From: Marchantia polymorpha subsp. ruderalis
Taxonomy: Eukaryota; Streptophyta; Marchantiopsida; Marchantiales; Marchantiaceae
DNA: 64,000 nt
Assembly: GCA_037833965.1 (NCBI GenBank)
Contig: AP031357.1
Location: 23,394,001 to 23,458,000 of the forward strand
Direction of reading: 5' to 3'
A program made the position numbers and the translations under genes. Below the pieces are notes generated by a model, which was not told where the DNA came from, searched no databases, and saw only the letters and a list, made by a program, of their open reading frames with translations. Positions 28,984 through 56,976 of the stretch are shown piece after piece (the stretch's first letter is position 1; each line of letters opens with the position of its first letter).

Positions 28984-29016
28984 GATAGCGTAGTGCTAGT
29001 TAGGATCTTTTGAGAG

Positions 29017-29023: not shown

Positions 29024-29943
29024 TAGATCAAGGCGTTTTGCCTTGGGACTCTTCTAGTTTCGGAAGTGCAGATCAGGAACTCACTTTCTTGACGTGTTTG
29101 TGCATTTTGGTCCTGGCACCACGTAGAGAAGCTGCAGCATAGCGAAGTTACCGTATGTTGTAGTTGAAGGCCTTCGGCTGAATGTTCAGAGCTAGTACCC
29201 GGTTAGAGACTTGAGTAGTGCGGATCTGCACCTGCGGGTGATTTCTGATGCTCAGAGCCGGCTGCGAGTTAGATACTTGAACAGTTCCCCCTTACTCCTT
29301 CGAGTGACATATCCTGATTGTACTCCTACGGGAAGTTTCCCCTGAATGCCAATGTGAAGTTTCATTACTTCGTGTAAACCTTGGTTTGTAATTCAGGTTG
29401 TGTGTGTGTTACTGGATCGTGTTTTCAGTAAGTTCTCGGTCGGGTCTGCACTCCCTGCGTTTTGTGTGATAGTCGAGGGTGACGTCCACGGCGTACGTAG
29501 AGGCTTCGTTCCGAAGTGAGAAGTCCAGTCCGGGTACCCCCGCTAGTTCCTGGCGGAAGGGCAGTAAGAGCCGGAGTGGGAGGCACTTCCTGCAGAACCT
29601 CTGAGTGAACTTACGAGACACTTTCCCCCTGAAATCCGAAGCGGAGGTCCTGACCGACCTCCGAGTTGCGCTTTTTTGCCAGTTTCAGGTGTGTGTGTGT
29701 GTGTGTTGAGTGACCAAGCTGTACCGTGCATCCTCCGAGCATCCTCCGAGTTGAGATCCTCCTCCGAGTCGAGCCTCCGAGTCGAGCACTGCAGTATTTC
29801 TGGGAGTGACAGTCGCCTAGAATTCAAACTCTACCAAAAGTCTGTTAAACGTGACACTTTTACTCTGTGTGTTGCCTCTGTCCCTGTGGGTTCGATCTTT
29901 TTACCACCATACTGCAAGTTTTAGCCTTTGGTGGGTTATTACA

Positions 29944-30026
29944 TAAGGAGCCGACAACTTCTTTTTGGCGCCGCTGCCGGGGACAGTGCGTCAACACCAG
30001 AATACTTGAGCAGCAATGCTCGGTGA
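29944..30026 (+). other. F1 leader with tRNA-Asp-type primer site
   Basis: Primer binding site at 29966-29983 (TGGCGCCGCTGCCGGGGA), 22 nt after the LTR end. A 13-codon upstream frame (30016-30057, MLGECRRAIVWET) overlaps the gag start; the left element (586-627) has a frame of the same length with the same MLGECRR beginning. Confidence 0.8.
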
Positions 30027-31782: not shown

Positions 31783-34700
31783 TGTGGTAACACACTTTTT
31801 GTTTTTTTTGCAGAATTTAAACAATTTTAGAAAACTAGTACCAAAGCAGTGTTTGTAGCTAGAGAAGGGTACGCAAAATAGAGTGGATTGAGGAGATCGT
31901 CACGAGGGCACAAAGAATCACGTAGTCGGATGTACCAACGCCAACGTCTTCGGCGCCTTCGGCAAAAGCTCCTTTTTGAGGTGTCTCTACTCACGCGCCT
32001 CTAGCGTATAAGGAAGCTACGCTTCCGGCGCAGACACCTCAGGAGGAGGTTTTGCTAAAGACGTCAGGAGAAGGGCCCGGACCTCTAAAGGCGTCCGACC
32101 ATGAGTGCGCCTTCGGCGAAGCGTCGCTAGCGCGGAAAGGGAAAACCTTCATAACAATCGGGATACACGGTAGATCCAGTTGGTTGAAGTTGCATTAGAA
32201 AGAGCTCGGGACGCTCGTTCTAACGAGTCCAAGAGCGCCGGAGATGGATCAGGAATGGAGAAGTTATGAGCGTCGGAAAACTCGTAGCCGGACATGCGCC
32301 GTTCGCGCTAGGGTTCACAGCCGGAAAGGATTCCCGTACGCCCTCGGCGATGCGCCTTCGGCGGAATCACGCGCTCACAGGAGGAAACCAACTCAGAGTC
32401 GGAAGCGCCCTTGGCGGCTGTTCATGGAAGGAAAGCGCCGGTCGGATGTACGCCTCCGACGTGGCGCTGACGGCCGGATGCGCTGGCATGAGTTGCGCTG
32501 ACGGATATGCGCTGGCAGCAACGGACGAGGCATAAAGGACAAAATAGGCGGTACAACTGCGCGCCGGCGTAATTCGCTCCGGCTGGATGTGCGCCTCCAG
32601 CACGGCGCCGACGGATAATGAACGCACCAGCGGCGACACGCCTCCGGAGAAGGGCGGGTTAGGAAAAGACAACAGGGCCGACGTATACCCTGCAGCGGAC
32701 TCGAGTCCGGAAGGTGGCGGCGGCGGGAGAATTCAACGTTTAAGCATGCGAATGCGCGCAATGCGGAGACGTGAATTCGCGCATGCAAAGGGCGAACCGT
32801 TAAGCCGTATAGCCGGCTGCGTACGTTGCAACCAGTAAGAACGTTGGACGTTCTTGAAATCGGAGAAGAAAAGACTGCGCTCCAGTCTCATTCTCTCATT
32901 CTTGACTTTGCAATTTCCAGTTCCAAGATTACGCGCAAGGGCGGAGCGACCTGCAGTGAGAGTAGAGAGTGCGGAGACGAGTTGCACAAGGATCTTGGCG
33001 GACCTTGAAAGAATTGGGAGTAGCGATCTTGAACGAGCGCAGAGAGAGTGAGCAGTCAGTGCTTGAGTGGCCGACGCGCAGTGGCGATTGTGAGAGAGTG
33101 AGCGAAAGGGAGAACGTTTGTGTGTGCAGACAACGCAATGTCGAAGGTTCCCCAACTGCGAGTGTCTCCACTCAGGGTGCCGCAGATCGGTCTACGCGCA
33201 TTTCAAGATGTGCTGACGAGGCTGAAGCTCGATTTTCTCCTCTGGGGGTGGAATTGGACGTGTCCGGAGATGGTGCGCGAGTATCTGCAAGAGAGACACA
33301 AGCCTTCTCGCGGATTTCGCCCACACCCAGAGAGATGGGAAATTTGCAATTGGGCGCAGGTGTTGGGCAGGTGTGCCGGCGAGGAAGGGGATCTCCTCTT
33401 CGAGGCCGACAGCGTGAAAGTGTCCCAGGAGGAAGAAGTCTCTTACAATGAGCTCTTCAAAGTGGCTAGACATCCCAAGAACGGTTTCCGGACTCGGGAT
33501 TACAAGGATCGATTGCGGAGAAATGTCGCGACAGCATTGCTGCAGATATTGCAGCCGACCAAGACCGCTTACATGCATGGTTGGCAGGTAGAGTTCGTGG
33601 AGCTAGTGTTGTCAGGAGCTCCGGTGCATTGGGCACGGCTCCTGTGGAAGGTGACGCGCCAACATGCGCAAGAAGAGAGGGGAGGAACGCTCAATCATCT
33701 ATCGCCTTACTTAATCGTGTTTTACCGGGCGATGGGATGTTTGACGAATGCTGAGAAAACTCGGTTTCCGCAGCTGAGCCGGTCTTATCCAGGTAGATAT
33801 TCGAGGGAGGCCGAAGTAGACACGGATCCGGACGAGGAACCTGCCAGTACGCCTCCGGCTCCGGCTCCAGCCAGAGCAGCAGAAGAACGTCGAAGTGAGC
33901 GCATTCCGCGCAAGCGGAAGTGGGATGAGGGACCTGAGGACAGGCAGCCGGAAGTACCATCTGCGCCGACTCGTGGTCGGCCCACCCCCGAGCCTCATAG
34001 TCGACCAAAACAGAGGGCACGCAGAATGCCAACTGGTACTGAGGAGACCAGGCGAACTCCGACCCGGCGGAATCTCACACAGGAAGAGATAATTGCTCAG
34101 GTCCTAGGGAAGACGGCAGAAACCTCTGCACAGAAGGCACCACGGCCTTCGGGAGGAGATGGACGGACTGACGACCGGCCGACTGCGAGTCGGATGACTG
34201 AAGGTCGACAAGCGGAAGGAAGGCCAACTGAACGGCGCGTTGAACCGGACAGCAGGCCGGAAGCGGAAGAGAGTTTGGCTGACGAGCCAACAATCCTCAG
34301 AGGGTCGTCTTCGGCGGAAGGCACTTCTGGAAGAACGCCACCAGCAAACAGGCCAAGTGGAGTCAAGACGCGCAGGGTGTATCCGACTCCCAGTCGGACA
34401 ACTGCTGGTCGGCCGACTGCGAGTCGGACAACAGAGAGTCAGCCGGATTCGCCGACTGCGAGACGGATGGGGCCAACGACCAGTATGCGGACGCCTTCGG
34501 CGGACGCACCTTCAGCAAGGACACCTTCCGCGCAGATTGCGCCGGAAGGACAGGCAGCAGAAGCGGGCGGTGCAAGAGTGACAAAAGTCACTGCGGCGTC
34601 GACCCCTTCACAAACCGAAGATCGAGCCGGAACAGGGGCTCAAGCAGTGGGATCTCCCACTGCCCTGGATATTTTAGCAGGCAGTGGAGCAGCAGTCGCA

Positions 34701-36652
34701 GCAGAAGCTGCTGCGCGCCACAGTTCCAGGGAGTCGCCAAGGGATTCGGTGGCGACTGAAATCCTCGAGACTGAGGATGAGACGAGCTCGGAAGAGCAAG
34801 AAGAGGATTCGGTGCAGAAAACGCCAACAGGGGTGCTGTGCGAACAGATAGTTCCACTCCTGCGATATCTGGATCGCAAGACATCCAAATACGGAAGTGC
34901 CTTAAAACCGCAGTCTTATGTGGAGACTATCAGGCGAAGGACGAGGATCAAGGTGGCAAAGTGGGCCTCTAGTTGCCAAGTATATGTGGAAAGGAACACC
35001 GCCCTCCGACAACACCTGGCGGTCACCCAGAAGCTGTACCAAGCCTTGCAGCAGCAGAAGGAGGATGCGGCGACGAAGAGTCAGGCGGAGGCCGAACTAA
35101 TACGGGCAAAGATCGAGTCGGAACTGCAGGAGGAGCGGAGACAGAACAAAGTCCTAGCAGCCGAGCTTGCGCGCTAGACGCGCGCCTTAGAGGAAAGTCA
35201 AAGAGCCCGCAAGGAGGATGAGGAGTTGTTGTGCAACTTGCAAACCGAGTGCTCGGATTTGAGGGCTCAACGTGCGGATTTAGAAATGCAGCTGGCAGAG
35301 GTGGAGAGCAGCTGCAGGGCACGAGGAGAGTTGGCGGCACGGGTGACTCGTTGTCTAAACGGATACACCCATTGGGAGGTGGCAGCTCAAGAGAGGGTTA
35401 CACTCCGGGAGTTCGAGCTTCGGGCGGCGGCCTTGACGGAAGGTGACAGTCGGAGTCGGCGGCGAGTGGCAAGAAAATTAGAAACCTTCTTGTCGGGTGC
35501 GCGCGACACTATGGCGCACTTGCAGTCGGAAGTCACTGCAGCGCTCCGACGCCTGGGGTTACGCAGCCGGTCGGAAGACTGGCAAGGTAGAGATAGTAAG
35601 CGGAGCAGTCCGGCGCGCAGGAGGCGCAGCACCGGATCTGCTGAGTGCAGTAGAGTAGTTTGGTTTCGCGCAGATGCTGCGAGTGGTAGATAGGATAGCG
35701 TAGTGCTAGTTAGGATCTTTTGAGAGTATAAAGTAGATCAAGGCGTTTTGCCTTGGAACTCTTCCAGTTTCGGAAGTGCAGATCAGGAACTCACTTTCTT
35801 GGCGTGTTTGTGCATTTGGTCCTGGCACCACGTAGAGAAGCTGCAGCATAGCGAAGTTACCGTATGTTGTAGTTGAAGGCCTTCGGCTGAATGTTCAGAG
35901 CTAGTACCCGGTTAGAGACTTGAGTAGTGCGGATCTGCACCTGCGGGTGATTTCTGATGCTCAGAGCCGGCTGCGAGTTAGATACTTGAACAGTTCCCCC
36001 TTACTCCTTCGAGTGACATATCCTGATTGTACTCCTACGGGAAGTTTCCCCTGAATGCCAATGTGAAGTTTCATTACTTCGTGTAAACCTTGGTTTGTAA
36101 TTCAGGTTGTGTGTGTGTTACTGGATCGTGTTTTCAGTAAGTTCTCAGTCGGGTCTGCACTCCCTGCGTTTTGTGTGATAGTCGAGGGTGACGTCCACGG
36201 CGTACGTAGAGGCTTCGTTCCGAAGTGAGAAGTCCAGTCCGGGTACCCCCGCTAGTTCCTGGCGGAAGGGCAGTAAAAGCCGGAGTGGGAGGCACTTCCT
36301 GCAGAACCTCTGAGTGAACTTACGAGACACTTTCCTCCTGAAATCCGAAGCGGAGGTCCTGACCGACCTCCGAGTTGTGCTTTTTGCCAGTTTCAGGTGT
36401 GTGTGTGTGTGTGTGTTGAGTGACCAAGCTGTACCGTGCATCCTCCGAGCATCCTCCGAGTTGAGTTCCTCCTCCGAGTCGAGCCTCCGAGTCGAGCACT
36501 ACAGTATTTCTGGGAGTGACAGTCGCCTAGAATTCAAACTCTACCAAAAGTCTGTTAAACGTGACACTTTTACTCTGTGTGTTGCCTCTGTCCCTGTGGG
36601 TTCGATCTTTTTACCACCATACTGCAGTTTTAGCCTTTGGTGGGTTATTACA
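31783..36652 (+). mobile_element. F1 solo LTR nested in gag
   Basis: 4870 bp, TGTGGTAACACAC...GGGTTATTACA, with the perfect 5-bp duplication AACCC at 31778-31782 and 36653-36657. It shows cleanly that the ~4.9-kb unit moves and recombines as an LTR: no primer site, gag or pol is inside, only U3 with its long frame, TATA (35727-35733) and R-U5. Very similar to the LTRs of its host element. Confidence 0.95.
33138..35693 (+). pseudogene. F1 U3 protein, copy in the nested solo LTR (one break)
   Basis: MSKVPQLRVS start at 33138 and the usual domain order through to the basic RRRRSTGSAEC tail at 35693. About 95% identical by eye to the copies in the surrounding element. It appears to carry one interruption in the coiled-coil region, so it is probably no longer functional. 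Confidence 0.75.
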
Positions 36653-37151: not shown

Positions 37152-38010
37152 TGTAAGACCGGGTGTTGCACATATGTACTAAGTCTTAAAAGTGGTCAAG
37201 GGAATAAGGATGATTAGCCAAGGCATAGCTAAGACTAGCTAGTTATGACTAAACTAGTTAGTTATAACTAAGTTTATCTAGTCATGACTAAGTTTAGCTA
37301 CAATATCTATAGTTGGCGGAATAATTAGCGGAGTTCTAGAAGAATGGAGTGAGCACTTCTATTTTGTCTTTTACAAGGAGTGAGCACTTCTATTTTGTCT
37401 CATACAAAAGTTCTAGATTCCAAGGGATTAGATATTTGACTAGAAGCTTGGATTTGATTGGTTTGACTAAATGTATGAAAGATGATTGGCTAGACTAAGT
37501 CTAATGTTGACTTAGTGGCTAGGAAGTTTGTAGAAGTTTAAAAGCTTCCAATGGCATGTCGCCACCTCAACCTTGGATTCCGGAAGCTTCTAGAAGGTTT
37601 AGGTAGGCCAATGGCATGTTGCCACGTAGAGAAGGTTAGTCAAACTTACCTAGGTAAAAGTAAGTTAGGAGAAATTACCACATGTTACTATGGTAACTTC
37701 TCAAGTAGTATAAATAGAGAGGTAGAGTAGCACCTCTCAAGCAAGTTTGGAGAGTCATGTGTGAGGACTTGTTTCAGTAATGAAGGAGTGAAGTTTTTGA
37801 GTATCTTGGAGTATCGACGTGTGTTTGCATTTATGTGAAGAGGGTGATGTGAGGAGAGTTTGTGTGTGAGTTGGAGTGATACATGAGAGTTTGTAAGAGA
37901 AGGTGTTTGGGACATGAGTGAGAGTATGAATCTTAGTCTTCTAGAACCATGATGCGCTACCACAAAGCCATCAGAGGTAAACCTGAGTGAGAGTCAGCCC
38001 GGAGGTTGCA
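37152..38010 (+). mobile_element. F4 solo LTR nested in the F1 element
   Basis: 859 bp, TGTAAGACCGGG...GGAGGTTGCA, flanked by the 4-bp duplication GTAC (37148-37151, 38011-38014). It differs at several bases from the F4 LTR pair at 2584 and 9578, so it comes from a separate insertion. With GAAC at the full copy, it shows that F4 makes 4-bp duplications. Confidence 0.93.
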
Positions 38011-38014
38011 GTAC

Positions 38015-38593
38015 AGAGTGGAAGGAGGAGACCTAGGACCTCCAGAGATCGAGGTAGAGATCGGAGGCTGCGTCATACAGAAGGTACCTGTGGACTCCGG
38101 CTCGGGCGTGAATATCATGACCGAGAAGACAGCGAACTCCTTGGGGTTCCAGACCTTCGAGCCTACATCCCGAGTATTGCGACTGGCCGATCAAACACGC
38201 AGAATGCCACTAGGAATGTTGAGCAATGTGAGAACCAACATTGGAGGAGTGGACTTTCAACTGTCCTACATAATACTGCAACCTCTGATGAAGAAAGGTT
38301 ATGATGTGCTGCTTGGCAGACCGTGGCTATACGATGCCAAAGCAAGGTGTGACTGGAGTAAGAAGAGATTACAGTTCCGTAGCCCTGCGGACCCTCCGAC
38401 TGTCATTACCGTACCGTGGACCAAGGTACCCCATGAAGGCGAAACACCTTCCACCACCTCCGGTTACACAACCGGAGGGGAGACCAGCTCATCATGCACT
38501 TCAGAGACCGAAACGTCGGAAGAATTTGTGGGCTACGTCACTTGCTGCTCTATTGAGGAGGAAGGAGACGAGGTGTATCCGGATGACGAATAG
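38015..38593 (+). CDS. F1 aspartic protease region
   Basis: Retropepsin-like protease that would mature the polyproteins. VDSGSGVNIMTEKTANSLG holds the catalytic Asp-Ser-Gly; ILQPLMKKGYDVLLGRPWLY is the second conserved block. An acidic/serine/threonine tail follows (ETSSSCTSETETSEE). RT-integrase follows in a separate frame segment. In related plant elements (Ogre/Tat) gag-protease and pol are likewise separated and joined at expression by splicing or recoding; which applies here is not shown. Confidence 0.8.
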   Translation, partial: RVEGGDLGPPEIEVEIGGCVIQKVPVDSGSGVNIMTEKTANSLGFQTFEPTSRVLRLADQTRRMPLGMLSNVRTNIGGVDFQLSYIILQPLMKKGYDVLLGRPWLYDAKARCDWSKKRLQFRSPADPPTVITVPWTKVPHEGETPSTTSGYTTGGETSSSCTSETETSEEFVGYVTCCSIEEEGDEVYPDDE

Positions 38594-38692
38594 CAACTAG
38601 CAGCCGGACTGGGCAGAAGCGAGATCAGTCACACAGAGGGGATTGTTGACCCGAGTGATTGCTGCGAACTGCAACTCAGTCCAGGTAAAGGC

Positions 38693-41434
38693 TTGAAGGT
38701 GTCAAGCCAGGTACAAGGAGAAGAGTTGAACAGGGTACAGGCGTTTCTTCGCCAGTATGAGGATGTCTTCGCATGGAAGATTGAAGACATGAAAGGCATA
38801 CCTGCAAGGTATGGAGAGCACAGAATCGACTTGTTGGACGAGGCAGTTCCGGTTCGCCAACGCCAATACAGGCTCAACCCAAAATATTCATTATTGGTGA
38901 AGGACGAAATCGATAAGTACCTGAGCGCAGGAATTATCTACCCGGTACTCAGTAGCGAGTGGGTGTCGCCTATCGTGATCGTGCCCAAGAAACTGACGGG
39001 TAAGATCCGGGTGTGTCAGGACTTCCGAAAGCTGAACGCAGCAACGCGGAAGGACCATCACCCTCTTCCTTTCACGGACTCTATTCTGGACCATGTAGCA
39101 GGGCATGAATGCTACAGTTTCCTAGACGGATTCTCCGGCTACAACCAGGTGTCCATCAGGGAACAGGACAAGGACAAAACAACCTTCACGACCGACTGGG
39201 GAACCTATGCTTATCATAAGATGCCGTTCGGTCTGTGCAACGCGCCAGCGACGTTCCAGCGGATGATGACAAACATCTTCCAAGAGCACCTGAGGAAGTT
39301 CCTAGAAATTTTCATCGACGACTTTTGTGTCTTCGGTAAGAGGTCGGAGCACCTTGACCATCTTCGGCAAACGTTCGACAGATGTAGGGAGAGCAGCTTG
39401 TCCTTACACCCTGAGAAATGTTTTTTCTTCATGACCAGCGGAATCCTGCTAGGGCACCGAGTTTCGTCCGATGGCATTGCAGTGGATGTAGAGAAGGTGA
39501 AGATTATTATCGAACTGCAGCCGCCAACGAATCTGCGTGAGTTGAGGGCCTTCCTTGGCCATGTAGGTTATTACAGAAGGTTCATAAATATGTACGCCAT
39601 CTTGGCAGCCGATCTGACGAAGCTGCTTAAGAAGGATGAACCCTATGTGTGGGGCAAGAAGCAACAGCTGGCCTTTGAAACGCTCAAAGCCAAACTGACG
39701 ACTGCTCCGGTTCTGAGAAGTCCGGATTGGAACAGACCTTTCCATGTCTATGTAGACACGTCGGCGTTTGCAATCGGGGTGGTTCTCAGTCAGAAGGACG
39801 ACAACAAGAAAGACTACCCGATTTACTTCGCGAGTCGTCAGTTGTCAGCAGCAGAGAAGAAGTACACGACAACTGAGAGGGAGGCGTTGGGAATGGTGTA
39901 CTCCTGTAAGAAGTTCCGACATTATTTGATCTGCTATGAGTTCGTGTTTCATGTAGATCATTACGCCTTACAGCACCTGGTCAAGAAGGCGGATCTGTCC
40001 GGACGAATTGCCAGGTGGGTACTACTGCTGCAGGAATTCACCTACACTGTACAGACACGGAAAGGCGTTCACCATGAGAACGCGGACTACCTCTCCCGAC
40101 TATGGACCGAACCCATAGAAGAGGAAGTAGTGGATGATTTTCCCGACGAACAACTTTTTCAGTTGTCCGCCAGCCATGAGTCCAGGTACGCAGACTTATA
40201 CAGGTTCCTGCTCACACTCCAATGTCCGGAAGGATTGGATGCGGAGCAGCGCACAGTCTTCGTTCATAAAGCGGGGCCTTACCAGCTTCAACAAGGGGTC
40301 TTGTTCAAGAAAATGGCAGACGAGAGGCTGTGCAGATGTCTAGAGGAGTCTGAAGTCCCGCGAGTTGTCAAAGCCATGCACACGGAAGACGCTGGTGGTC
40401 ACTACGCCACCAGAAATACAGTGACCAAAATTGTGAATGCAGGATACTGGTGGCCGACGATGTTCAAAGATGTACATGACTACGTTCGCAAATGCGACAG
40501 CTGCCAGAGGACGGGAAGGCCGACTCCGACCACGAGATGGCCTCTTACACCAATCATGCCATTGGCACCATTTGAAAAATGGGGGATCGACTTCGTGGGA
40601 CCAATACAACCTGTCACTAAAGGCACGCGCAGGCGCTACATATTGGTAGCAACAGACTATGCGACCAAGATGGTGGAGGCCGAGGCCACAAGGCACGATG
40701 ACGCAGCCGCAGTAGCACGGTTCCTATTCGAATCAATCATCACCCGCTACGGGTGCCCCCTAGAAATAGTCAGTGACAGAGGGACGCACTTTCTGAATCA
40801 GGTGATAAAGAGTTTGACGCGGCACTTCCAGATTAAGCATCGAAAGACTACTCCATACAACCCCAAGGCAAATGGTCTGACAGAGAAGTCCAATGGATTA
40901 CTCTGTAAGATACTCCTCAAGGTGACTGTAAACCATGCTCATGACTGGGACACCAAGCTACCAGCCGCCTTATGGGCATATAGAACGGCAGAAAAAGTCA
41001 CCACCAGGCAAACACCTTACTTCCTAGTTTATGGGCAGCATCCGATCTTACCCATCGAATTTGAGATACCTACCAAAAGGACCTTAGATCAGAGAAGGCT
41101 GGACGCGGAAGAAAGTCAGGCATATCGACTGCACGAGGTAATGGCACTGGAGGAAAGACGTCAAGAGGCCGAAGATCGGACAAAGCAATTACAACTCAGG
41201 CGGAAGGAGAAGTACGATAGAAGGCTCAAACCAGTACTGCTGGAGAAGGGCGACTTGGCTCTGCTATACGATAGCAGACATGCTAGATTTCCAGGCAAGC
41301 TCCACTTGAGGTGGATGGGACCTTACAAGGTGATAGAAGTTTTTCCAAATGGATCCATCCAACTCGCAGAACTGACGGGAGAATGGTTAGGCACCCGCGT
41401 GAACGGATGGCGTCTGAAGAAATACCACGTGTAA
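38693..41434 (+). CDS. pol: F1 reverse transcriptase, RNase H and integrase
   Basis: 913 codons from the first Met (the domain may begin slightly upstream). RT ~35-250: VRQRQYRLNPKY, VCQDFRKLNAATRKD, KMPFGLCNAPATFQRMM and the catalytic FIDDFCVFG at ~206-214. RNase H ~350-470: VYVDTSAFAIGVVL, TTEREALGMV, DHYALQHLVKKA. Integrase: zinc finger ~565-605 (HTEDAGGHYA...CDSCQ); core with WGIDFVGPIQ, VSDRGTHFLNQ and NGLTEKSN giving D,D,E. The C-terminus RVNGWRLKKYHV has no chromodomain. RT copies the RNA, RNase H removes it and integrase inserts the DNA. The gene order defines Ty3/gypsy. Confidence 0.93.
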   Translation: MKVSSQVQGEELNRVQAFLRQYEDVFAWKIEDMKGIPARYGEHRIDLLDEAVPVRQRQYRLNPKYSLLVKDEIDKYLSAGIIYPVLSSEWVSPIVIVPKKLTGKIRVCQDFRKLNAATRKDHHPLPFTDSILDHVAGHECYSFLDGFSGYNQVSIREQDKDKTTFTTDWGTYAYHKMPFGLCNAPATFQRMMTNIFQEHLRKFLEIFIDDFCVFGKRSEHLDHLRQTFDRCRESSLSLHPEKCFFFMTSGILLGHRVSSDGIAVDVEKVKIIIELQPPTNLRELRAFLGHVGYYRRFINMYAILAADLTKLLKKDEPYVWGKKQQLAFETLKAKLTTAPVLRSPDWNRPFHVYVDTSAFAIGVVLSQKDDNKKDYPIYFASRQLSAAEKKYTTTEREALGMVYSCKKFRHYLICYEFVFHVDHYALQHLVKKADLSGRIARWVLLLQEFTYTVQTRKGVHHENADYLSRLWTEPIEEEVVDDFPDEQLFQLSASHESRYADLYRFLLTLQCPEGLDAEQRTVFVHKAGPYQLQQGVLFKKMADERLCRCLEESEVPRVVKAMHTEDAGGHYATRNTVTKIVNAGYWWPTMFKDVHDYVRKCDSCQRTGRPTPTTRWPLTPIMPLAPFEKWGIDFVGPIQPVTKGTRRRYILVATDYATKMVEAEATRHDDAAAVARFLFESIITRYGCPLEIVSDRGTHFLNQVIKSLTRHFQIKHRKTTPYNPKANGLTEKSNGLLCKILLKVTVNHAHDWDTKLPAALWAYRTAEKVTTRQTPYFLVYGQHPILPIEFEIPTKRTLDQRRLDAEESQAYRLHEVMALEERRQEAEDRTKQLQLRRKEKYDRRLKPVLLEKGDLALLYDSRHARFPGKLHLRWMGPYKVIEVFPNGSIQLAELTGEWLGTRVNGWRLKKYHV

Positions 41435-41471
41435 ATGTTCGCGTGGGCGCTCACAATTGAGGAGGGGGGCA
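41435..41471 (+). promoter_or_regulatory. F1 3' spacer and polypurine tract
   Basis: GAGGAGGGGGGCA at 41459-41471 directly before TGTGGTAACAC. It is conserved in the outer F1 element (16991-17003) and, reversed, in the F3 element (51632-51644). The long U3 frame lies downstream of this tract and is therefore copied into both LTRs at reverse transcription. Confidence 0.9.
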
Positions 41472-44400
41472 TGTGGTAACACACTTTTTGTTTTTTTGCA
41501 GAATTTAAACAATTTTAGAAAACTAGTACCAAAGCAGTGTTTGTAGCTAGAGAAGGGTACGCTAAACAGAGTGGATTGATGAGATCGTCACGAGGACACA
41601 AAGAATCACGCAGTCGGATGTGCCAACGTCTTCGGCGCCTTCGGCAAAAGCTCCTTTTTGAGGTGTCTCTACTCACGCGCTTCTAGCGTATAAGGAAGAT
41701 ACGCTTCCGGCGCAGACACCTCAGGAGGAGGTTTTACTAAAGACGTCAGGAGAAGGGCCCGGACCTCTAAAGGCATCCGACCATGAGTGCGCCTTCGGCG
41801 AAGCGCCGCTAGCGCGGAAAGGGAAAACCTTCATAACAATCGGGATACACGGTAGATCCAGTTGATTGAAGTTGCATTAGAAAGAGCTCGGGATGCTCGT
41901 TCTAACGAGTCCAAGAGCGTCGGAGATGGATCAGGAATGGAGAAGTTATGAGCGTCGGAAAACTCGTAGCCGGACATGCGCCGTTCGCGCTAGGGTTCAC
42001 AGCCGGAAAGGATTCCCGTACGCCCTCGGCAATGCGCCTTCGGTGGAATCACGCGCTCATAGGAGGAAACCCACTCAGAGTCGGAAGCGCCTTTGGAGGC
42101 TGTTCATAGAAGGAAAGCGCCGGTCGGATGCACGCCTCCGACGTGGCGCTGACGGCCGGATGCGCTGGCATGAGATGCGCTGGCATGAGTTGCGCTGGCG
42201 GATATGCGCCGGCAGCAACGGACGAGGCATAAAGGACAAAATAGGCGGTACGACTGCGCGCCGGCGTAATTCGATCCGACTGGATGTGCGCCTCCAGCAA
42301 GGCGCCGACGGATAATGAACGCACCAGCGGCGACACGCCTCCGGAGAAGGGCGGGTTAGGAAAAGACAACAGGGCCGACGTATACCCTGCAGCGGACTCG
42401 AGTCCGGAAGGTGGTGGCGGCGGGAGAATTCAACGTTTAAGCATGCGAATGCGCGCAATGCGGAGACGTGAATTCGCGCATGCAAAGGGCGAACCGTTAA
42501 GCCGTATAGCCGGCTGCGTACGTTGCAACCAGTAAGAACGTTGGACGTTCTTGAAATCGGAGAAGAAAAGACTGCGCTCCAGTCTCATTCTCTCATTCTT
42601 GACTTTGCAATTTCCAGTTCCAAGATTACGCGCAAGGGCGGAGCGACCTGCAGTGAGAGTAGAGAGTGCGGAGACGAGTTGCACAAGGATCTTGGCGGAC
42701 CTTGAAAGAATTGGGAGTAGCGATCTTGAACGAGCGCAGAGAGAGTGAGCCGTCAGTGCTTGAGTGGCCGACGCGCAGTGGCGATTGTGAGAGAGCGAGC
42801 GAAAGGGAGAACGTTTGTGTGTGCAGGCAACGCAATGTCGAAGGTTCCCCAGCTGCGAGTGTCTCCACTCAGGGTGCCGCAGATCGGTCTACGCGCATTT
42901 CAAGATGTGCTGATGAGGCTGAAGCTCGATTTTCTCCTCTGGGGGTGGAATTGGACATGTCCGGAGATGGTGCGCGAGTATCTGCAAGAGAGACACAAGC
43001 CTTCTCGCGGATTTCGCCCACACCCAGAGAGATGGGACATTTGCAATTGGGCGCAGGTGTTGGGCAGGTGTGCCGGCGAGGAAGGGGATCTCCTCTTCGA
43101 GGCCGACAGCGTGAAAGTGTCCCAGGAGGAAGAAGTCTCTTACAATGAGCTCTTCAAGGTAGCTAGACATCCCAAGAACGGTTTCCGGACACGGGATTAC
43201 AAGGATCGATTGCGGAGAAATGTCGCGACGGCATTGCTGCAGATATTGCAGCCGACCAAGACCGCTTACATGCATGGTTGGCAGGTAGAGTTCGTGGAGC
43301 TAGTGTTGTCAGGAGCTCCGGTGCATTGGGCACGGCTCCTGTGGAAGGTAACGCGCCAACATGCGCAAGAAGAAAGGGGAGGAACGCTCAATCATCTATC
43401 GCCTTACTTAATCGTGTTTTACCGGGCGATGGGATGTTTGACAAATGCTGAGAAAACTCGGTTTCCGCAGCTGACCCGGACTTATCCAGGAAGATATTCG
43501 AGGGAGGCCGAAGTAGACACGGATCCGGACGAAGAACCTGCCAGTACGCCTCCGGCTCCGGCTCCAGCAAGAGCAGCAGAAGAACGTCGAAGTGAGCGCA
43601 TTCCGCGAAAGCGGAAGTGGGATGAGAGACCTGAGGACAGGCAGCCGGAAGTGCCAGCTGCGCCGACTCGTGGTCGGCCCACCCCCGAGCCTCACAGTCG
43701 ACCAAAACAGAGGGCACGCAAAATGCCAACTGTTACTGAGGAGACCAGGCGAACTCCGACCCGGCGGAATCTCACACAGGAAGAGATAATCGCTCAGGTC
43801 CTAGGGAAGACGGCAGAAACCTCTGCACAGAAGGCACCACGGCCTTCGAGAGGAGATGGACGGACTGACGACCGGCCGACTCCCAGTCGGATGACTGAAG
43901 GTCGACAAGCGGAAGGAAGGCCAACTGAACGGCGCGTTGAACCGGACAGCAGGCCGGAAGCAGAAGAGAGTTTGGCTGACGAGCCAACAATCCTCAGAGG
44001 GTCGTCTTCGGCGGAAGGCACTTCTGGAAGAACGCCACCAGCAAGCAGGCCAAGTGGAGTCAAGACGCGCAGGGTGTATCCGACTCCCAGTCGGACAACT
44101 GCTGGTCGGCCGACTGCGAGTCGGACAACAGAGAGTCAGCCGGATTCGCCGACTGCGAGACGGATGGGGCCAACGACGAGTGTGCGGACGCCTTCGGCGG
44201 ACGCACCTTCAGCAAGGACACCTTCCGCGCAGATTGCGCCGGAAGGACAGGCAGCAGAAGCGGGCGGATCAAGAGTGACAAAAGTCACTGCGGCGTCGAC
44301 CCCTTCACAAACCGAAGATCAAGCCGGAACAGGGGCTCAAGCAGTGGGATCTCCCACTGCCCTGGATATTTTAGCAGGCAGTGGAGCAGCAGCCGCAGCG

Positions 44401-46350
44401 GAAGCTGCTGCGCGCCACAGTTCCAGGGAGTCGCCAAGGGATTCGGTGGCGACTGAGATCCTCGAGACTGAGGATGAGACGAGCTCGGAAGAGCAAGAAG
44501 AGGATTCGGTGCAGAAAACGCCAACAGGGGTGCTGTGCGAACAGATAGTTCCACTCCTGCGATATCTGGATCGCAAGACATCCAAATACGCAAGTGCCTT
44601 AAAACCGCAGTCTTATGTGGAGACAATCAGGCGAAGGACGAGGAGCAAGGTGGCAAGGTGGGCCTCTAGGTGCGGAGTATATGTGGATAGGAACACCGCC
44701 CTCCGACAACACCTGGCGGTCACCCAGAAGCTATACCAAGCCTTGCAGCAGCAGAAGGAGGATGCGGCGACGAAGAGTCAGGCGGAGGCCGAGCTAATAC
44801 GGGCAAAGATCGAGTCGGACTTGCAGGAGGAGCGGAGACAGAATAAAGTCCTAGCAGCCGAGCTTGCGCGCCAGACGCGCGCCTTAGAAGAAAGTCAAAG
44901 AGCCCGCAAGGAGGATGAGGAGTTGTTGCGCAACTTGCAAACCGAGTGCTCGGATTTGAGGGCACAACGTGCGGAATTAGAAATGCAGCTGGCAGAGGTG
45001 GAGAGCAGCTGCAGGGCACGAGGAGAGTTGGCGGCACGGGTGACTCGTTGTCTAAACGGATACACCCATTGGGAGGTGGCAGCTCAAGAGAGGGTTACAC
45101 TCCGGGAGTTCGAGCTTCGGGCGGCGGCCTTGACGGAAGGTGACAGTCGGAGTCGGCGGCGAGTGGCGAGAAAATTAGAAACTTTCTTGTCGGGTGCGCG
45201 CGACACTATGGCGCACTTGCAGTCGGAAGTCACTGCAGCGCTCCGACGCCTGGGGTTACGCAGCCGGTCGGAAGACTGGCAAGGTAGAGACAGTAAGCGG
45301 AGCAGTCCGGCGCGCAGGAGGCGCAGCACCGGATCTGCTGAGTGCAGTAGAGTAGTTTGGTTTCGCGCAGATGCTGCGAGTGGTAGATAGGATAGCGTAG
45401 TGCTAGTTAGGATCTTTTGAGAGTATAAAGTAGATCAAGGCGTTTTGCCTTGGGACTCTTCCAGTTTCGGAAGTGCAGATCAGGAACTCACTTTCTTGAC
45501 GTGTTTGTGCATTTTGGTCCTGGCACCACGTAGAGAAGCTGCAGCATAGCGAAGTTACCGTATGTTGTAGTTGAAGGCCTTCGGCTGAATGTTCAAAGCT
45601 AGTACCCGGTTAGAGACTTGAGTAGTGCGGATCTGCACCTGCGGGTGATTTCTGATGCTCAGAGCCGGCTGCGAGTTAGATACTTGAACAGTTCCCCCTT
45701 ACTCCTTCGAGTGACATATCCTGATTGTACTCCTACGGGAAGTTTCCCCTGAATGCCAATGTGAAGTTTCATTACTTCGTGTAAACCTTGGTTTGTAATT
45801 CAGGTTGTGTGTGTGTTACTGGATCGTGTTTTCAGTAAGTTCTCGGTCGGGTCTGCACTCCCTGCGTTTTGTGTGATAGTCGAGGGTGACGTCCACGGCG
45901 TACGTAGAGGCTTCGTTCCGAAGTGAGAAGTCCAGTCCGGGTACCCCCGCTAGTTCCTGGCGGAAGGGCAGTAAGAGCCGGAGTGGGAGGCACTTCCTGC
46001 AGAACCTCTGAGTGAACTTACGAGAAACTTTCCCCCTGAAATCCGAAGCGGAGGTCCTGACCGACCTCCGAGTTGCGCTTTTTTGCCAGTTTCAGGTGTG
46101 TGTGTGTGTGTGTTGAGTGACCAAGCTGTACCGTGCATCCTCCGAGCATCCTCCGAGTTGAGATCCTCCTCCGAGTCGAGCCTCCGAGTCGAGCACTGCA
46201 GTATTTCTGGGAGTGACAGTCGCCTAGAATTCAAACTCTACCAAAAGTCTGTTAAACGTGACACTTTTACTCTGTGTGTTGCCTCTATCCCTGTGGGTTC
46301 GATCTTTTTACCACCATACTGCAAGTTTTAGCCTTTGGTGGGTTATTACA
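41472..46350 (+). repeat. F1 3' LTR of the full element
   Basis: 4879 bp, TGTGGTAACACAC...GGGTTATTACA. Nearly identical to 25046-29943. TATA 45424-45430; GT run near 46097. Followed at 46351 by the right copy of the 155-bp duplicated target. Confidence 0.93.
42835..45390 (+). CDS. F1 U3-encoded protein (851 aa), 3' LTR copy
   Basis: Open frame, MSKVPQLRVS start, two residues shorter than the 5' LTR copy because a Pro-Ala repeat differs by one unit, otherwise almost identical. In this position it is the last gene of the element, 1.4 kb after the polypurine tract. It could be expressed from the genomic RNA, for example through splicing onto CAG sites at 42617 or 42826. Domain description as for 26422. 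Confidence 0.75.
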   Translation: MSKVPQLRVSPLRVPQIGLRAFQDVLMRLKLDFLLWGWNWTCPEMVREYLQERHKPSRGFRPHPERWDICNWAQVLGRCAGEEGDLLFEADSVKVSQEEEVSYNELFKVARHPKNGFRTRDYKDRLRRNVATALLQILQPTKTAYMHGWQVEFVELVLSGAPVHWARLLWKVTRQHAQEERGGTLNHLSPYLIVFYRAMGCLTNAEKTRFPQLTRTYPGRYSREAEVDTDPDEEPASTPPAPAPARAAEERRSERIPRKRKWDERPEDRQPEVPAAPTRGRPTPEPHSRPKQRARKMPTVTEETRRTPTRRNLTQEEIIAQVLGKTAETSAQKAPRPSRGDGRTDDRPTPSRMTEGRQAEGRPTERRVEPDSRPEAEESLADEPTILRGSSSAEGTSGRTPPASRPSGVKTRRVYPTPSRTTAGRPTASRTTESQPDSPTARRMGPTTSVRTPSADAPSARTPSAQIAPEGQAAEAGGSRVTKVTAASTPSQTEDQAGTGAQAVGSPTALDILAGSGAAAAAEAAARHSSRESPRDSVATEILETEDETSSEEQEEDSVQKTPTGVLCEQIVPLLRYLDRKTSKYASALKPQSYVETIRRRTRSKVARWASRCGVYVDRNTALRQHLAVTQKLYQALQQQKEDAATKSQAEAELIRAKIESDLQEERRQNKVLAAELARQTRALEESQRARKEDEELLRNLQTECSDLRAQRAELEMQLAEVESSCRARGELAARVTRCLNGYTHWEVAAQERVTLREFELRAAALTEGDSRSRRRVARKLETFLSGARDTMAHLQSEVTAALRRLGLRSRSEDWQGRDSKRSSPARRRRSTGSAECSRVVWFRADAASGR

Positions 46351-46505
46351 CCTGGGGTTGCGCAGCCGGTCGGAAGACTGGCAAGGTAGAGACTGCGAGC
46401 GGATCAGTCCGGCGCGCAGGAGGCGCAGCACCGGATCAGCCGAGTGCAGTAGAATAGTTTGGTTTCGCGCAGATGCTGCGAGTAGTAGATAGGATAGCGT
46501 AGTGC
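46351..46505 (+). repeat. 155-bp direct repeat flanking the full F1 element, right copy
   Basis: Begins CCTGGGGTTGCGCAG exactly at the end of the 3' LTR and matches 24891-25045. It encodes the last codons of the parental U3 frame and runs to just before the TATA region. Confidence 0.85.
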
Positions 46506-49500
46506 TAGTTAGGATCTTTGAGGGTATAAAGTAGATCAAGGCGTTTTGCCTTGGGACTCTTCCAGTTTCGGAAGTGCAGATCAGGAATTCACTTTCTTGG
46601 CGTGTTTGTGCATTTTGGTCCTGGCACCACGTAGAGAAGCTGCAGCATAGCGAAGTTACCGTATGTTGTAGTTGAAGGCCTTCGGCTGAATGTTCAGAGC
46701 TAGCACCCGGTTAGAGACTTGAGTAGTGCGGATCTGCACCTGCGGGTGATTTCTGATGCTCATAGCCGGCTGCGAGTTAGATACTTGAACAGTTCCCCCT
46801 TACTCCTTCGAGTGACATATCCTGATTGTACTCCTACGGGAAGTTTCCCCTGAATGCCAATGTGAAGTTTTATTACTTCGTGTAAACCTTGGTTTGTAAT
46901 TCAGGTTGTGTGTGTGTTACTGGATCGTGTTTTCAGTAAGTTCTCAGTCGGGTCTGCACTCCCTGCGTTTGGTGTGATAGTCGAGGGTGACTTCCACGGC
47001 GTATGTAGAGGCTTCGTTTCGAAGTGGGAAGTCCAGTCCGGGTACCCTACGCTAGTTCCTGGCGGAAGGGCAGTAAAAGCCGGAGTGGGAGGCACTACCT
47101 GCAGAACCTCTGAGTGACCTTTTGAGACACTTTCCTCCTGAAATCCGAAGCGGAGGTCCTGACCGACCTCCGAGTTGTGCTTTTTGCCAGTTTCAGGTGT
47201 GTGTGTGTGTGTGTGTGTTGAGTGACTACGCTGTACTGTGCATCCTCCGAGCATCCTCCGAGTCGAGATCCTCCTCCGAGTCGAGCCTCCGAGTCGAGCA
47301 CTGCAGTATTTCTGGGAGTGACAGTCGCCTAGAATTCAAACTCTACAAAAGTCTGTTAAACGTGACATTTTTACTCTGTGTGTTGCCTCTGTCCCTGTGG
47401 GTTCGATCTTTTTACCATCATACTGCAGTTTTAGCCTTTGGTGGGTTATTACAAGCGCCGACGAAGAGACAAGGAACGGACAGTCTGGGCGGAGACGGCT
47501 GACCGCGGTCAACGCCTTCCGCGCCAGCGCGTCGCCGCGGACGGAATTCGCCTGCGCACAGGCGAGCGCCTGTGCACAGGAGGATGAAGTTCCGCGCCGG
47601 CGGAGAATCCGCTGAGGAGTTTGCCTACGCACAGGCGGGAGTTGAACTTTTGTCCGACATGCGGACTCACGCGTCGAGGCAGAAGGGGATTGGCTGAGGA
47701 GCGGTACGGACGAGTGTACCGCGCAAGGCGGAAAACTCGCCTTCGGCGCTGCGCACTCATGTCCGCGGTGTAGTACGCTCGCGGAGTTCAAATCCGCCAA
47801 TTCGAGCGTGAGAGTTTAATCGGCGACGGCGGAGCGTGAAGCCGCGCGTGAGAGCGGAGACCGTTTCAGCGTAGAGCCGGCGCGGCCATCAATTGAGACG
47901 TCCTCCACGAGCAAGAGCCGACCATGACCTTCGACCGGGCGGCGGAGAGCGTCCCATTCTTGAATTCGCGATTCCATTCTCTTGTGCGAGCTGCGCGCGT
48001 CCATCTGCTGGCTGCTAAGCATTCTCGACATCGCCGCACAGAGGATTTCTTGGTGATTGAGGGAGAAGTGAGTGCGCGTGATTTGGAATTGAGGGCGATT
48101 AGAGTTTGCCGAGGAAGAAAGGAGCTCGAGCGGTGCGGAAGTAGAATGAGCGGGCGAGCGAACTCCAGGAACGCAATGACGAGACCGGGCCGATTGCGGA
48201 TGCTGCCGCTTCGTCTACCACAGAACGGGCTGCCCGCTTTCGAGGAGCGCTTGATAGCAAGAAAGCTCGATTTCTTGCTATGGGGATGGAACTACATCTG
48301 TGCGGATATGGTGCGCGAGTGGCTAGAGCCACAGGGACCACCCTCGCGCGGATTGCGTCCGCATGTTGATCGGTGGACAGTCCAAGATTGGGCGCAGGCA
48401 TTGGGAAGATGTGCCGGCATGCTAGGGCATCTCCTCTTCGACAGTGAGAGCATCAAGGTGACCAAGCAGGAAGAGGCGAAATTTGTGGAGCTGTTCAAGA
48501 CCGGGAGGTCTACCAAGAATGGGTACAGGACCCGCGATTACAAGGATTGATTCCGCCGGACTTTGTCCGCGGCGCTGATGCAATTACTGCAGCCACACCG
48601 CGCCTGCTACGTCACATTGTGGCAGGTCTCTTTTGTGGAGTGCGTCATCGAGGGAACTCCAATTCACTGGGCGAGCATCCTGCACAGGGTAATGCGACAG
48701 CACGCTTTTGAGGAGAAGGGGGGAACTCTAAACCATCTCTCTCCTTTCCTCATCAATTTTTATCGACAGCGGAATTGTTTGACAGCGGCGGAGCTTGCGC
48801 GTTTTCCGCCGTTGTCCGTCGACCATCCCGGGAAGTATGTGCGGGAGAATGAGGTCGACACTGACGCAGATGAGTCACCAACTTCTACTCCGTCAAGGCG
48901 GAGGTACGAAGGGAGGAACACTCCTGCAGCACGAGCGCCGCGGAAGCGGCGATGGAGAGAGGAGTCCGAAGAGGAGTGTAATAACCCACCAAAGGCTAAA
49001 ACTGCAGTATGGTGGTAAAAAGATCGAACCCACAGGGACAGAGGCAACACACAGAGTAAAAGTGTCACATTTAACAGACTTTTGGTAGAGTTTGAATTCT
49101 AGGCGACTGTCACTCCCAGAAATACTGCAGTGCTCGACTCGGAGGCTCGACTCGGAGGAGGAACTCAACTCGGAGGATGCTCGGAGGATGCACGGTACAG
49201 CGTAGTCACTCAACACACACACACACACACCTGAAACTGGCAAAAAGCACAACTCGGAGGTCGGTCAGGACCTCCGCTTCGGATTTCAGGAGGAAAGTGT
49301 CTCGTAAGTTCACTCAGAGGTTCTGCAGGAAGTGCCTCCCACTCCGGCTTTTACTGCCCTTCCGCCAGGAACTAGCGTAGGTACCCGGACTGGACTTCTC
49401 ACTTCGGAACGAAGCCTCTACGTACGCCGTGGACGTCACCCTCGACTATCACACAAAACGCAGGGAGTGCAGACCCGACTGAGAACTTACTGAAAACACG

Positions 49501-54862: not shown

Positions 54863-56976
54863 AGGAGCAGCATCAAGAACCCTCTGCTCCCATTCGACCG
54901 CGGCCGTTGTACGAGTCATACAGCCGGCCGAAGCAGAAGGCACGCAGACTGGTGTTACCAGCCAACAGTGCGGACACGGCGACGATTGCGACGGAGAAAG
55001 GAAGTGCGTTGCCAGAGAAGAATGAGGAAGCGCGGACGTCCGCAGGAGCAACGGACCACGCTGCAGTCTCGACGGGCGAGAGGCCGCCTACGGGCCAAGG
55101 GCCTCCGGAGTTACCACGTGCGTTGCGGACAGGTGTTCCGTTTGCGCACATGCGAGCCTCCGCGGACGGACGAGCCTCCGCGGACGGACGATCACAAGCG
55201 GACGTAGATCTACGCCTACGCGTGGGAAGAAGCAGTCCGCCTGTGCACAGGCGCTCGCCTGTGCACAGGTCGCCTCCACACGTGCCGCTTGTGCACAGGC
55301 AGGAATCACCCCCGTTCCAACGTAGGAAGAGGAAGGAGCCGGCGGAAGAGCCGCCTACGAGATACCGGCCTTCGGGGCCAGACCCTCCGGCGCACAACGC
55401 GCCGCGATTTGCGCCTTCGGCGCCAGGGCCTTCGAGCCGAGGAGATACGAGCAGGGAGTGTGCGGAGGCCGCACCATCGGCGGGTAATCCGCCGGTAGAT
55501 GCGCCTTCGGCGGTAGGGCCTCAGGGCCAAGGGACATCGGGCGAGCGGCCCCCGGCCATGTCGCCTTGGGCGATGGACGTCCGCGGCGCTACGCCCGCGG
55601 CGGACAAGGCGCCGGCATTTGCGCCTGCGCACAGGCCAAGCACAGCCCCCGCGGACCGATCAAGGGAGCAGCAACAGGCGGAGGAGCGGAGTGACTGTCC
55701 GTGGGATGAAATTTCGGTGCGCGATGCGCAATCAAACCCCGCGCAGCCACCCTCCGCTCGATCGCCTTCGGCGGCGGACGTCGGCGGCAGAGAGAATACG
55801 ATAGACGATCAACAAGCGGGCGGCGGGGATGCAGCACGGGCACATTCGCCTACCGCCTTAGACATTTTGGCGAAGAGCAGCGAGGCTGCAGCCGTGCCTT
55901 CGCAGGCAGCACACGTCGACGACGTGCAGCCCCACTCGGGTCAGTCGCCGACGCAATCAATGGCGACTGAAATTCTCCACTCGGATGATGACGACGGAGG
56001 CTCCACCGAAGAAATGTCAGGAGCAGGGGACATCGAGGAGGAGGAGGAGGAAATTGTTGGAGCGCCGGCGGCGGCGCTCTCTGAGCAGGTGATTCCGTTG
56101 TTGAGGTACTTGGATCGCAAAGTCGATAAATACGCCGACCCACTTCAGCCGGGATCTTACATCGAGTTAGTGCGCAGGCGGACTCGCACTAAAGTCCACA
56201 CCAGCAAGCTACTAGCTAGAGTGGACCAGGAGTTGAGGGAATTGAAGGAGAAGCATGAATGCTTGTGGGGTCAGTATAAACTCAATCAGAAATTCTACAA
56301 GTACTCCGAGAAGGTGAGGGATGGGAAACTGGAAGAGCTCACCAAGGAGCAGGTGAAGGTCACAGAAGCACTAATTTCTGAGCAGGCCCAGAATCGGATT
56401 TTGTCAGAGGAGCTTGTGCGCCAGACGCGGTTGTTAGAACAGTGTCAGCTCGCACGACAGGCAGATGAGGATGTAATCCGCAGGCTACAGTCAGAGTGTG
56501 GCGAATTGAGAGCGCAACGTGCTGAGGCCGAATCGCAATTAGTGGTAATTGAAGAGGATCGCAGGAAGGAGGCAGATCGCACAAAGGTGGAGACAACGAG
56601 GCGTGTCGCCCACTGTCTCAAGGGCTACGCCCACTGGGAAGTGGCGGCGCAGGAGAAACTCACACTGCGTGAGTTTGAACTTCGCGCGGCCGGGTTGTTG
56701 TCAGGCGACAGCGGGAGTCGGCGGAAGGTAGCAAAGAAGCTTGACGCTTTTCTGTCGAAGGCGCGGGATACCATGTCCGCCCTCGAAGTGGAGGTGTCCG
56801 CGGCGTTGCAGCGATTGGGACTGCGCAGTCGAGCGGAAGACTGGCAGGGTAGGGAGTTAGTGCGCGGCAGTCCGTCGCGCAGGAGACGTAGCACAGGTTC
56901 CGCGGAGTGTAGTGTAGCGTGGTTCCGTGTAGGCGTGTAGCGTAGTGCAGTGTAGTGCTAGTTAGGACTTAGAAGG

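What the first reader, a model, noticed from the sequence alone, without database searches (positions are those of the whole stretch)
41472..45390. A ~850-codon gene encoded inside the LTR (in U3) of a giant-LTR gypsy element
In the full F1 element the frame lies after the polypurine tract (41459-41471) and before the TATA box (45424), so it is in U3. It is copied into both LTRs (26422-28983 and 42835-45390) and survives in solo LTRs (22477-25032, 33138-35693). Three of these copies are fully open. In the RNA it would be the 3'-terminal gene, the env or accessory position. LTR-encoded genes are rare (MMTV sag is the known case), and I know of none of this size and make-up in a plant gypsy element.
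Basis: partly seen in the sequence, partly recalled or inferred. Interest (0 to 1): 0.92.

Follow-up and report, generated by a model that had tools for sequence, protein, structure and literature searches.

The report
Conserved gene inside retrotransposon LTRs
A jumping element of the liverwort Marchantia carries a third, roughly 850-codon gene inside its long terminal repeats, where genes are almost never found, and sequence comparison shows that evolution has kept it working as a protein.

Summary
Confirmed and extended. The 851-codon frame at 42835-45390 lies wholly in the U3 of a 4.88-kb LTR, 1.36 kb after a polypurine tract that sits 24 nt past the pol stop, and before TATA. It recurs in the 5' LTR and in TSD-flanked solo LTRs. 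A second family in the window (protein 42-45% identical) has the same gene in its LTR. The genome fits Marchantia polymorpha. It holds 2,683 matching U3 starts and 444 PPT-U3 junctions. Of 20 3' LTRs picked by DNA pattern only, 16 have the frame open. Over 21 sequences dN/dS is 0.27, and 0.085 in the N-terminal domain; noncoding U3 shows no codon signal. The protein is a conserved 215-aa domain, a basic NLS-like stretch, a linker and a long coiled coil, with no transmembrane stretch, no convincing Pfam match and no named homolog found outside M. polymorpha. The element is Ty3/gypsy, Tat/Athila-like by domain content. Best reading: a real accessory gene in the position of MMTV sag, probably read from a spliced RNA, making a soluble, probably nuclear, trans-acting protein. 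Expression and function are inferred, not shown. Older related families are mostly decayed.

The parts
41472..46350 (+). 3' LTR of element F1 (4,879 bp, TG...CA)
   Evidence: self-BLAST; ends read
42835..45390 (+). LTR (U3) gene, 851 codons, 3' LTR copy
   Evidence: purifying selection
42835..43482 (+). conserved N-terminal domain of the U3 gene (about 215 aa)
   Evidence: dN/dS of residues 1-240 0.04-0.15, 0.085 in the DNA-picked set; alignment
43603..43722 (+). basic, NLS-like stretch PRKRKW ... RPKQRARK (residues 257-296)
   Evidence: of 37 family proteins that span the site, 26 have a PRKRKW-like and 24 an RPKQKA-like motif, 20 both; coordinates
44614..45138 (+). coiled coil: one predicted helix of about 175 residues (residues 594-768)
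   Evidence: AlphaFold2 model, pLDDT 90 or more in the middle, 65-78 at the ends
25046..29943 (+). 5' LTR of F1 (lacks the first two bases)
26422..28983 (+). U3 gene, 5' LTR copy (853 codons, open)
29966..29983 (+). primer-binding site TGGCGCCGCTGCCGGGGA, 22 nt after the LTR (tRNA-Asp type by recall)
30027..31790 (+). gag, cut by the solo LTR at 31783
   Evidence: Pfam Retrotrans_gag 1.7e-13, zf-CCHC 4e-10
37991..38593 (+). aspartic protease frame, ends at TAG 38591-38593 followed by CAACTA
   Evidence: Pfam; stop read; other copies
38594..41434 (+). RT, RNase H (single, native), integrase; Pfam reports no chromodomain and no second RNase H
   Evidence: RNase H residues read
41459..41471 (+). 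polypurine tract GAGGAGGGGGG plus CA, start of U3; identical in old copy A
42594..42617 (+). candidate 3' splice site CATTCTTGACTTTGCAATTTCCAG, 217 nt before the ATG
   Evidence: kept in F1, mid, B; TTTTCCAG in A; AG absent in F2; in 19 of 20 fetched 3' LTRs
45424..45429 (+). TATA box, after the gene
   Evidence: also in mid, F2 and the nonautonomous LTR
31783..36652 (+). solo LTR (mid), TSD AACCC, in F1 gag; frame 33138-35693 with one stop
21117..25045 (+). left part of solo LTR-B, TSD AGCGC; frame 22477-25032 open; F1 lies inside it
46351..47453 (+). right part of solo LTR-B; its first 156 bp repeat the end of the left part
   Evidence: 99.4% to LTR-B left over 156 bp; 95.8% to F1 over the whole piece
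17004..20378 (+). older 3' LTR (A, about 82% identical), preceded by pol end and the same PPT; frame broken by a frameshift and a stop; continues 57950-59579
10644..13751 (-). second family F2: U3 gene, 1035 codons, open, in solo LTR 1767-14994 (TSD ACAAG)
47924..48976 (+). F2 copy 2, first part of the frame (TGA at 48548-48550), in solo LTR 20379-57949 (TSD ACCTT)
54863..56940 (+). F2 copy 2, second part of the frame after the insert

Best explanation
F1 is a Ty3/gypsy element, Tat/Athila-like by domain content, in the genome of a liverwort (Marchantia polymorpha or very near). Its plus-strand primer, the PPT, lies directly after pol. Everything downstream, a third protein-coding gene of 851 codons included, is therefore U3 and is copied into both LTRs at every round. 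SHOWN: the gene's place in the LTR; its presence in two families; its open frame in most young 3' LTRs sampled; purifying selection on the protein. INFERRED: in the genomic RNA it is the 3'-terminal gene and is probably translated from a spliced subgenomic RNA, with an acceptor about 217 nt before the ATG, as MMTV sag is. INFERRED and less sure: the product is a soluble, oligomeric (coiled-coil), probably nuclear accessory protein that helps its own element, most likely by countering silencing or activating transcription. Loss of gag-pol by LTR-LTR recombination leaves the gene behind in solo LTRs.
For: Position: PPT, U3 start, TATA, PBS, TG...CA ends and 5-bp TSDs. Elsewhere in the genome frame copies are spaced 10.65-10.66 kb (four pairs and one triple), with pol between them at C9:6.19 Mb and C5:9.25-9.27 Mb. 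F2 copies are spaced 11.16-11.17 kb at C4:14.47-14.50 Mb. Selection: F1 vs LTR-B N-domain has 32 synonymous and 5 nonsynonymous changes, codon positions 2/3/32; 0 of 2,000 neutral simulations had as few nonsynonymous changes; noncoding U3 flat in three frames. The DNA-picked set gives 0.27 overall, 0.085 N, 0.44 linker, 0.32 C. Openness: 16 of 20. Family: 43 proteins, 108 with the N-domain profile. Coiled coil; basic stretch conserved, no TM window. Candidate acceptor. A gene model of another Marchantia family (P0090) runs from integrase (68% to F1 pol) into the N-domain (65%).
Against: No transcript or protein evidence was available. The acceptor AG is not kept in F2, and no donor was identified. 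Outside the N-domain the signal is weaker: F1 vs B alone, 474 of 2,000 simulations (linker) and 121 of 2,000 (C part) had as few nonsynonymous changes; F2 copies 5 of 2,000 (residues 1-350) and 24 of 2,000 (351-1035). The N-domain model is poor (mean pLDDT 47), so the fold is unknown. A nonautonomous relative moved with an LTR that lacks the gene, so the gene is not needed in cis. Copies found by protein score are biased towards open frames. Among 10 U3 starts not in the PPT list only 4 are open. The best-scored relatives in two diverged families mostly carry stops.
Confidence: 0.7

Rival explanations
1. Structural or assembly cofactor: the coiled-coil protein works with Gag or the integration complex (particle assembly, nuclear import, target choice) rather than on silencing or transcription.
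For: Long coiled coil; basic stretch; selection in the replicating lineage; a nonautonomous relative that lacks the gene still moved, as expected if the protein is supplied in trans.
Against: gag, protease, RT, RNase H and integrase are all found by Pfam, and the related element 2575-10438 has no such gene. No direct evidence.
Confidence: 0.25
2. Env-like or cell-to-cell movement protein in the env position.
For: 3'-terminal sense gene after pol, the place of env-like additional ORFs in plant elements (PMC7264820, text part 1 of 3 seen).
Against: No hydrophobic stretch: highest 19-residue Kyte-Doolittle mean 1.09 (F1) and 1.14 (F2), no window above 1.6; basic NLS-like stretch.
Confidence: 0.04
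3. A frame kept open by composition or by the youth of the copies, without function.
For: GC-rich sequence with few stops; the F1 LTR pair has dN/dS 0.98 (8 changes); the linker of F1 vs B looks neutral.
Against: Codon-position pattern and neutral simulations, DNA-picked sample, same protein at 42-45% identity in F2, Markov runs at most 345 codons.
Confidence: 0.02
4. A host gene captured recently by one element, or a domesticated host gene seen here only in a repeat context.
For: One intact 902-codon relative at G000:C6:13.71 Mb, while most of its scored relatives carry stops, could be domesticated.
Against: Thousands of LTR copies; the two families whose structure was examined, F1 and F2, both have it in the LTR; no homolog found outside Marchantia.
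Confidence: 0.05

Closest known systems
MMTV sag (gene in the U3 of a betaretrovirus LTR)
   Same: Accessory gene read from the 3' LTR, which it makes exceptionally long; in MMTV the mRNAs use an acceptor just upstream of the frame, and almost all endogenous copies keep sag intact while most lose virion genes (PMC3026287, passages seen).
   Different: No sequence relation seen; plant gypsy host, gene about 2.7 times longer (sag length recalled), soluble coiled-coil protein; expression untested.
Additional ORFs (aORFs) of plant Athila, Grande, RIRE2 and Retand elements
   Same: Extra gene downstream of pol, family-wide, of unknown function (PMC7264820 text part 1 of 3; PMC11963269 passages).
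   Different: Those lie in the internal region between pol and the 3' LTR, often antisense; here the gene is sense and inside U3.
[not shown]
   Same: Reported from both Marchantia genomes examined there; no aRH, native RNase H not degraded (PMC10508981 passages).
   Different: An LTR gene is not mentioned in the passages seen; RT phylogeny not run here.
Retrosat2 / RIRE3 / RIRE8 ORF0
   Same: LTRs of about 3 kb or more and a lineage-limited extra gene (PMC3485330 passages).
   Different: ORF0 lies upstream of gag-pol, not in the LTR.
Cassandra elements (5S-like sequence in the LTR)
   Same: A gene-like sequence inside a plant LTR (PMC10853983, start of abstract).
   Different: A 5S rRNA-type promoter sequence in a nonautonomous element, not a protein gene.

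Membership tests
Ty3/gypsy LTR retrotransposon | gag with zinc knuckles; protease, RT, RNase H, integrase in that order | tested here: met
   Pfam on three frames of F1 (gag; protease; RT-RNase H-integrase)
Ty3/gypsy LTR retrotransposon | TG...CA LTRs, PBS, PPT, 5-bp TSD | tested here: met
   TSDs shown for four solo LTRs; F1 itself is flanked by a 156-bp repeat, not a 5-bp TSD
[not shown]
   Pfam finds one RNase H region; acidic residues read in the sequence (labels recalled)
[not shown]
   no reference RT sequences fetched
Chromovirus | integrase C-terminal chromodomain | tested here: inconclusive
   no Pfam chromodomain; pol ends NGWRLKKYHV
Plant sense aORF (aORF-3S) | gene between pol and the 3' LTR, outside the LTR | tested here: not met
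   gene lies inside U3 in F1, A and F2
LTR-encoded accessory gene (MMTV sag type), by position | complete gene within U3, present in both LTRs | tested here: met
LTR-encoded accessory gene (MMTV sag type), by expression | spliced mRNA with acceptor upstream of the frame | not testable with these tools
   candidate acceptor only
MMTV Sag protein family | sequence homology | tested here: inconclusive
   no Sag family among Pfam matches at E up to 1; no match in solved structures at E up to 1
Env-like protein | transmembrane segment | tested here: not met
   no 19-residue window above 1.6
Plant transposon-protein domains in Pfam (such as gypsy-type Transposase_28) | Pfam match of the N-domain | tested here: inconclusive
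   none for 6 N-domains at E up to 10; among 17 members at 0.1 only single-member matches to unrelated families, most of them long-helix or repeat types

The most novel reading that the evidence does not exclude
In Marchantia the LTR itself is a gene-bearing unit: a lineage of Tat-type elements moved a trans-acting accessory gene into U3, so that many hundreds to thousands of solo LTRs remain as stand-alone copies of it and can supply its protein to full and nonautonomous elements across the genome, uncoupling the copy number of this gene from gag-pol.
Probability: 0.2. Interest if true: 0.9.

Novelty: new variant of a known kind. Interest (0 to 1): 0.76.

Why it matters
A long protein gene under purifying selection inside the LTR of a plant gypsy element breaks the usual rule that LTRs are noncoding control DNA. 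Solo LTRs, normally counted as dead remnants, can then carry a full gene. The system is in a model plant with a small genome, so expression, splicing and function can be tested directly, as can how a gene comes to lie in U3 through the position of the PPT.
Full report
WHERE IT IS. The window is G000:C8:23394001-23458000 of a 241.5-Mb genome in 9 contigs. Every named homolog of the frame is from Marchantia polymorpha (16, 43 and 108 proteins; the rest are unnamed), the closest 96% identical over 59%, so the host is M. polymorpha or very near.

ANATOMY. F1 has a 5' LTR at 25046-29943, a PBS at 29966-29983, gag from 30027, protease, RT-RNase H-integrase to 41434, a PPT 24 nt after the pol stop, and a 3' LTR at 41472-46350. 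The 851-codon frame 42835-45390 begins 1,363 nt into U3 and ends 33 nt before TATAAA (45424). It is therefore entirely U3. The 5' LTR has the same gene at 26422-28983.

SOLO LTRS AND NESTING. Four solo LTRs with 5-bp TSDs carry the gene: LTR-B (AGCGC; F1 sits inside it), the LTR at 31783-36652 (AACCC), and two of the second family F2: 1767-14994 (ACAAG) and 20379...57949 (ACCTT). An older LTR (A, about 82% identical) has the same pol end and PPT in front of its U3. Of the four F1-type frames in the window three are open and one has a stop at codon 680; A has a frameshift and a stop. Of the two F2 frames one is open (1035 codons from ATG) and one has a stop and an insertion.

A SECOND FAMILY. 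The F2 protein is 42-45% identical to F1 over the aligned parts. At the left edge of the window an F2 LTR end (1-510) is followed by a PBS (533-550) and a gag at 597-1453 that is 58-80% identical to F1 gag. In the genome three F2 copies occur at 11.16-11.17 kb spacing (C4:14.47-14.50 Mb), as the LTRs of full elements would.

GENOME-WIDE. By protein score 53 F1-type copies were scored of 13,819 candidates; 44 of 53 have no stop (biased to good copies). For F2, 31 of 44 scored copies have no stop (same bias). By DNA pattern (up to one mismatch in 24 bases) there are 444 PPT-U3 junctions and 2,683 U3 starts, reversed-pattern controls 0. If each junction stands for an element with two LTRs, about 1,800 starts belong to solo or cut LTRs (rough estimate). 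The listing shows 100 of the 444 junctions, all exact; the 20 on contig C2 were fetched. Of these 16 of 20 have the frame open over 849-851 codons, two stop early (364, 490), one is rearranged (698) and one has lost it. Ten U3 starts on C2 that are not among the listed junctions were fetched: 4 of 10 open over 851-853 codons. Two more diverged families, searched with P0016 and P0005, are mostly decayed: most of their 81 and 82 scored places carry stops. Whether those families have the gene in the LTR was not tested.

SELECTION. F1 vs LTR-B: 129 differences, 72 synonymous and 57 nonsynonymous, no stop. Neutral placement keeping base and CpG context gives 40 synonymous, 85 nonsynonymous and 4 stops, and 0 of 2,000 simulations had as few nonsynonymous changes. 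In residues 1-240 the codon positions are 2/3/32 (32 synonymous, 5 nonsynonymous; 0 of 2,000). Taken alone, the linker (474 of 2,000) is not distinguishable from neutral, and the C part (121 of 2,000; codon positions 16/5/27, p = 0.0005) is borderline. F1 vs mid: 0 of 2,000 overall, 1 for the N-domain. F2 vs its second copy: 5 of 2,000 (residues 1-350), 24 of 2,000 (351-1035). The control, U3 upstream of the gene, is flat in all three frames. Domain values of dN/dS for F1 vs B: 0.04, 0.52, 0.35. The DNA-picked set (18 of the 20 fetched, two dropped as lost or rearranged, plus F1 3' LTR, LTR-B and mid) gives 0.27 overall, 0.085 N, 0.44 linker, 0.32 C; shared changes are more synonymous than single ones (N-domain 36:5 against 23:12). 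The 5'-3' LTR pair of F1 gives 0.98 from 8 changes, as expected for drift after insertion.

THE PROTEIN. The N-domain is strongly conserved across 11 family members (30 invariant columns). Next comes a basic stretch PRKRKW...RPKQRARK: of 118 proteins held, 37 span this place; 26 have the first motif, 24 the second, 20 both. A linker rich in Pro, Ser, Thr and Gly follows, then a single predicted helix of about 175 residues. There is no transmembrane stretch. No Pfam family is convincing, and no relative was found in viral or prokaryote contigs. The AlphaFold model of the N-domain is poor and its structure searches say nothing.

HOW IT PROBABLY WORKS. With the PPT directly after pol, reverse transcription starts U3 there and copies the gene into both LTRs (established mechanism; position shown). 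In the genomic RNA it is the last gene. Translation 1.4 kb after the pol stop would need a subgenomic RNA. A pyrimidine-rich CATTCTTGACTTTGCAATTTCCAG, 217 nt before the ATG, is kept in F1 and mid and with small changes in B and in 19 of 20 fetched 3' LTRs; A keeps TTTTCCAG. F2 keeps the motif without the AG. MMTV sag mRNAs use an acceptor just upstream of their LTR frame (PMC3026287, passages). Two Marchantia gene models in the protein database fit: P0090 runs from integrase (68% to F1 pol) into the N-domain (65%; Pfam itself gave no family for it), and P0015 joins part of the U3 frame to gag. Both are models, not RNA evidence. The function is inferred: soluble, oligomeric, probably nuclear, acting in trans, since a nonautonomous relative whose LTR lacks the gene also moved.

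VERDICT. A real, selected, lineage-limited gene in the LTR of a plant gypsy element: a new variant of a known kind. Expression and role are open.

Noticed in passing
38591-38599: In-frame TAG between protease and RT followed by CAACTA, a match to the type I readthrough context UAG-CARYYA (PMC5382211, passages). All 48 scored pol copies have an open frame of exactly 946 codons, as if bounded by a stop at this place, and all 100 listed of 360 pattern matches read TAG there: probably programmed readthrough.
   Followed up: partly
48977-54862 (-): Short nonautonomous element (TSD AGGAG) with 2.6-kb LTRs and F1-like PBS and PPT; its U3 has a 30/60-bp tandem array and no tblastn trace of the gene.
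   Followed up: partly
24891-25046 and 46351-46506: F1 is flanked by a 156-bp direct repeat of its target LTR-B (99.4% identical) instead of a 5-bp TSD, and its 5' LTR lacks the first two bases: a noncanonical insertion or later rearrangement.
   Followed up: partly
2575-10438: Another gypsy element: LTRs of about 865 bp, 99.9% identical, one gag-pol frame of 1590 codons, pol 45% identical to F1, no LTR gene; an LTR copy of it sits in F1 at 37143-38015.
   Followed up: no
22232, 26181, 32897, 42594, 47955 (+); 13698, 15397 (-): A motif of 22 bp (CATTCTTGANTTYGCRATTYCA) upstream of the gene is kept in F1 and F2 copies: 7 matches with up to 3 mismatches, 0 expected; role unknown.
   Followed up: partly
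G000:C6:13709682-13712387: One relative of the gene with a 902-codon frame free of stops, while most of its scored relatives carry stops: last intact copy or domesticated gene.
   Followed up: no
G000:C5:9246393-9270257 and C4:3412641-3433978: Tandem arrays LTR-internal-LTR-internal-LTR with a period of about 10.66 kb.
   Followed up: no
G000:C1 (5.6 Mb): The U3 starts repeat with nearly the same spacing in three blocks around 2.27-2.40, 2.67-2.80 and 3.03-3.15 Mb, so this small contig probably holds large segmental duplications.
   Followed up: no
41472-42834: Noncoding U3 before the gene diverges less (5.5% F1 vs B) than N-domain synonymous sites (dS 0.22), suggesting constraint on regulatory sequence or uneven mutation.
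   Followed up: no
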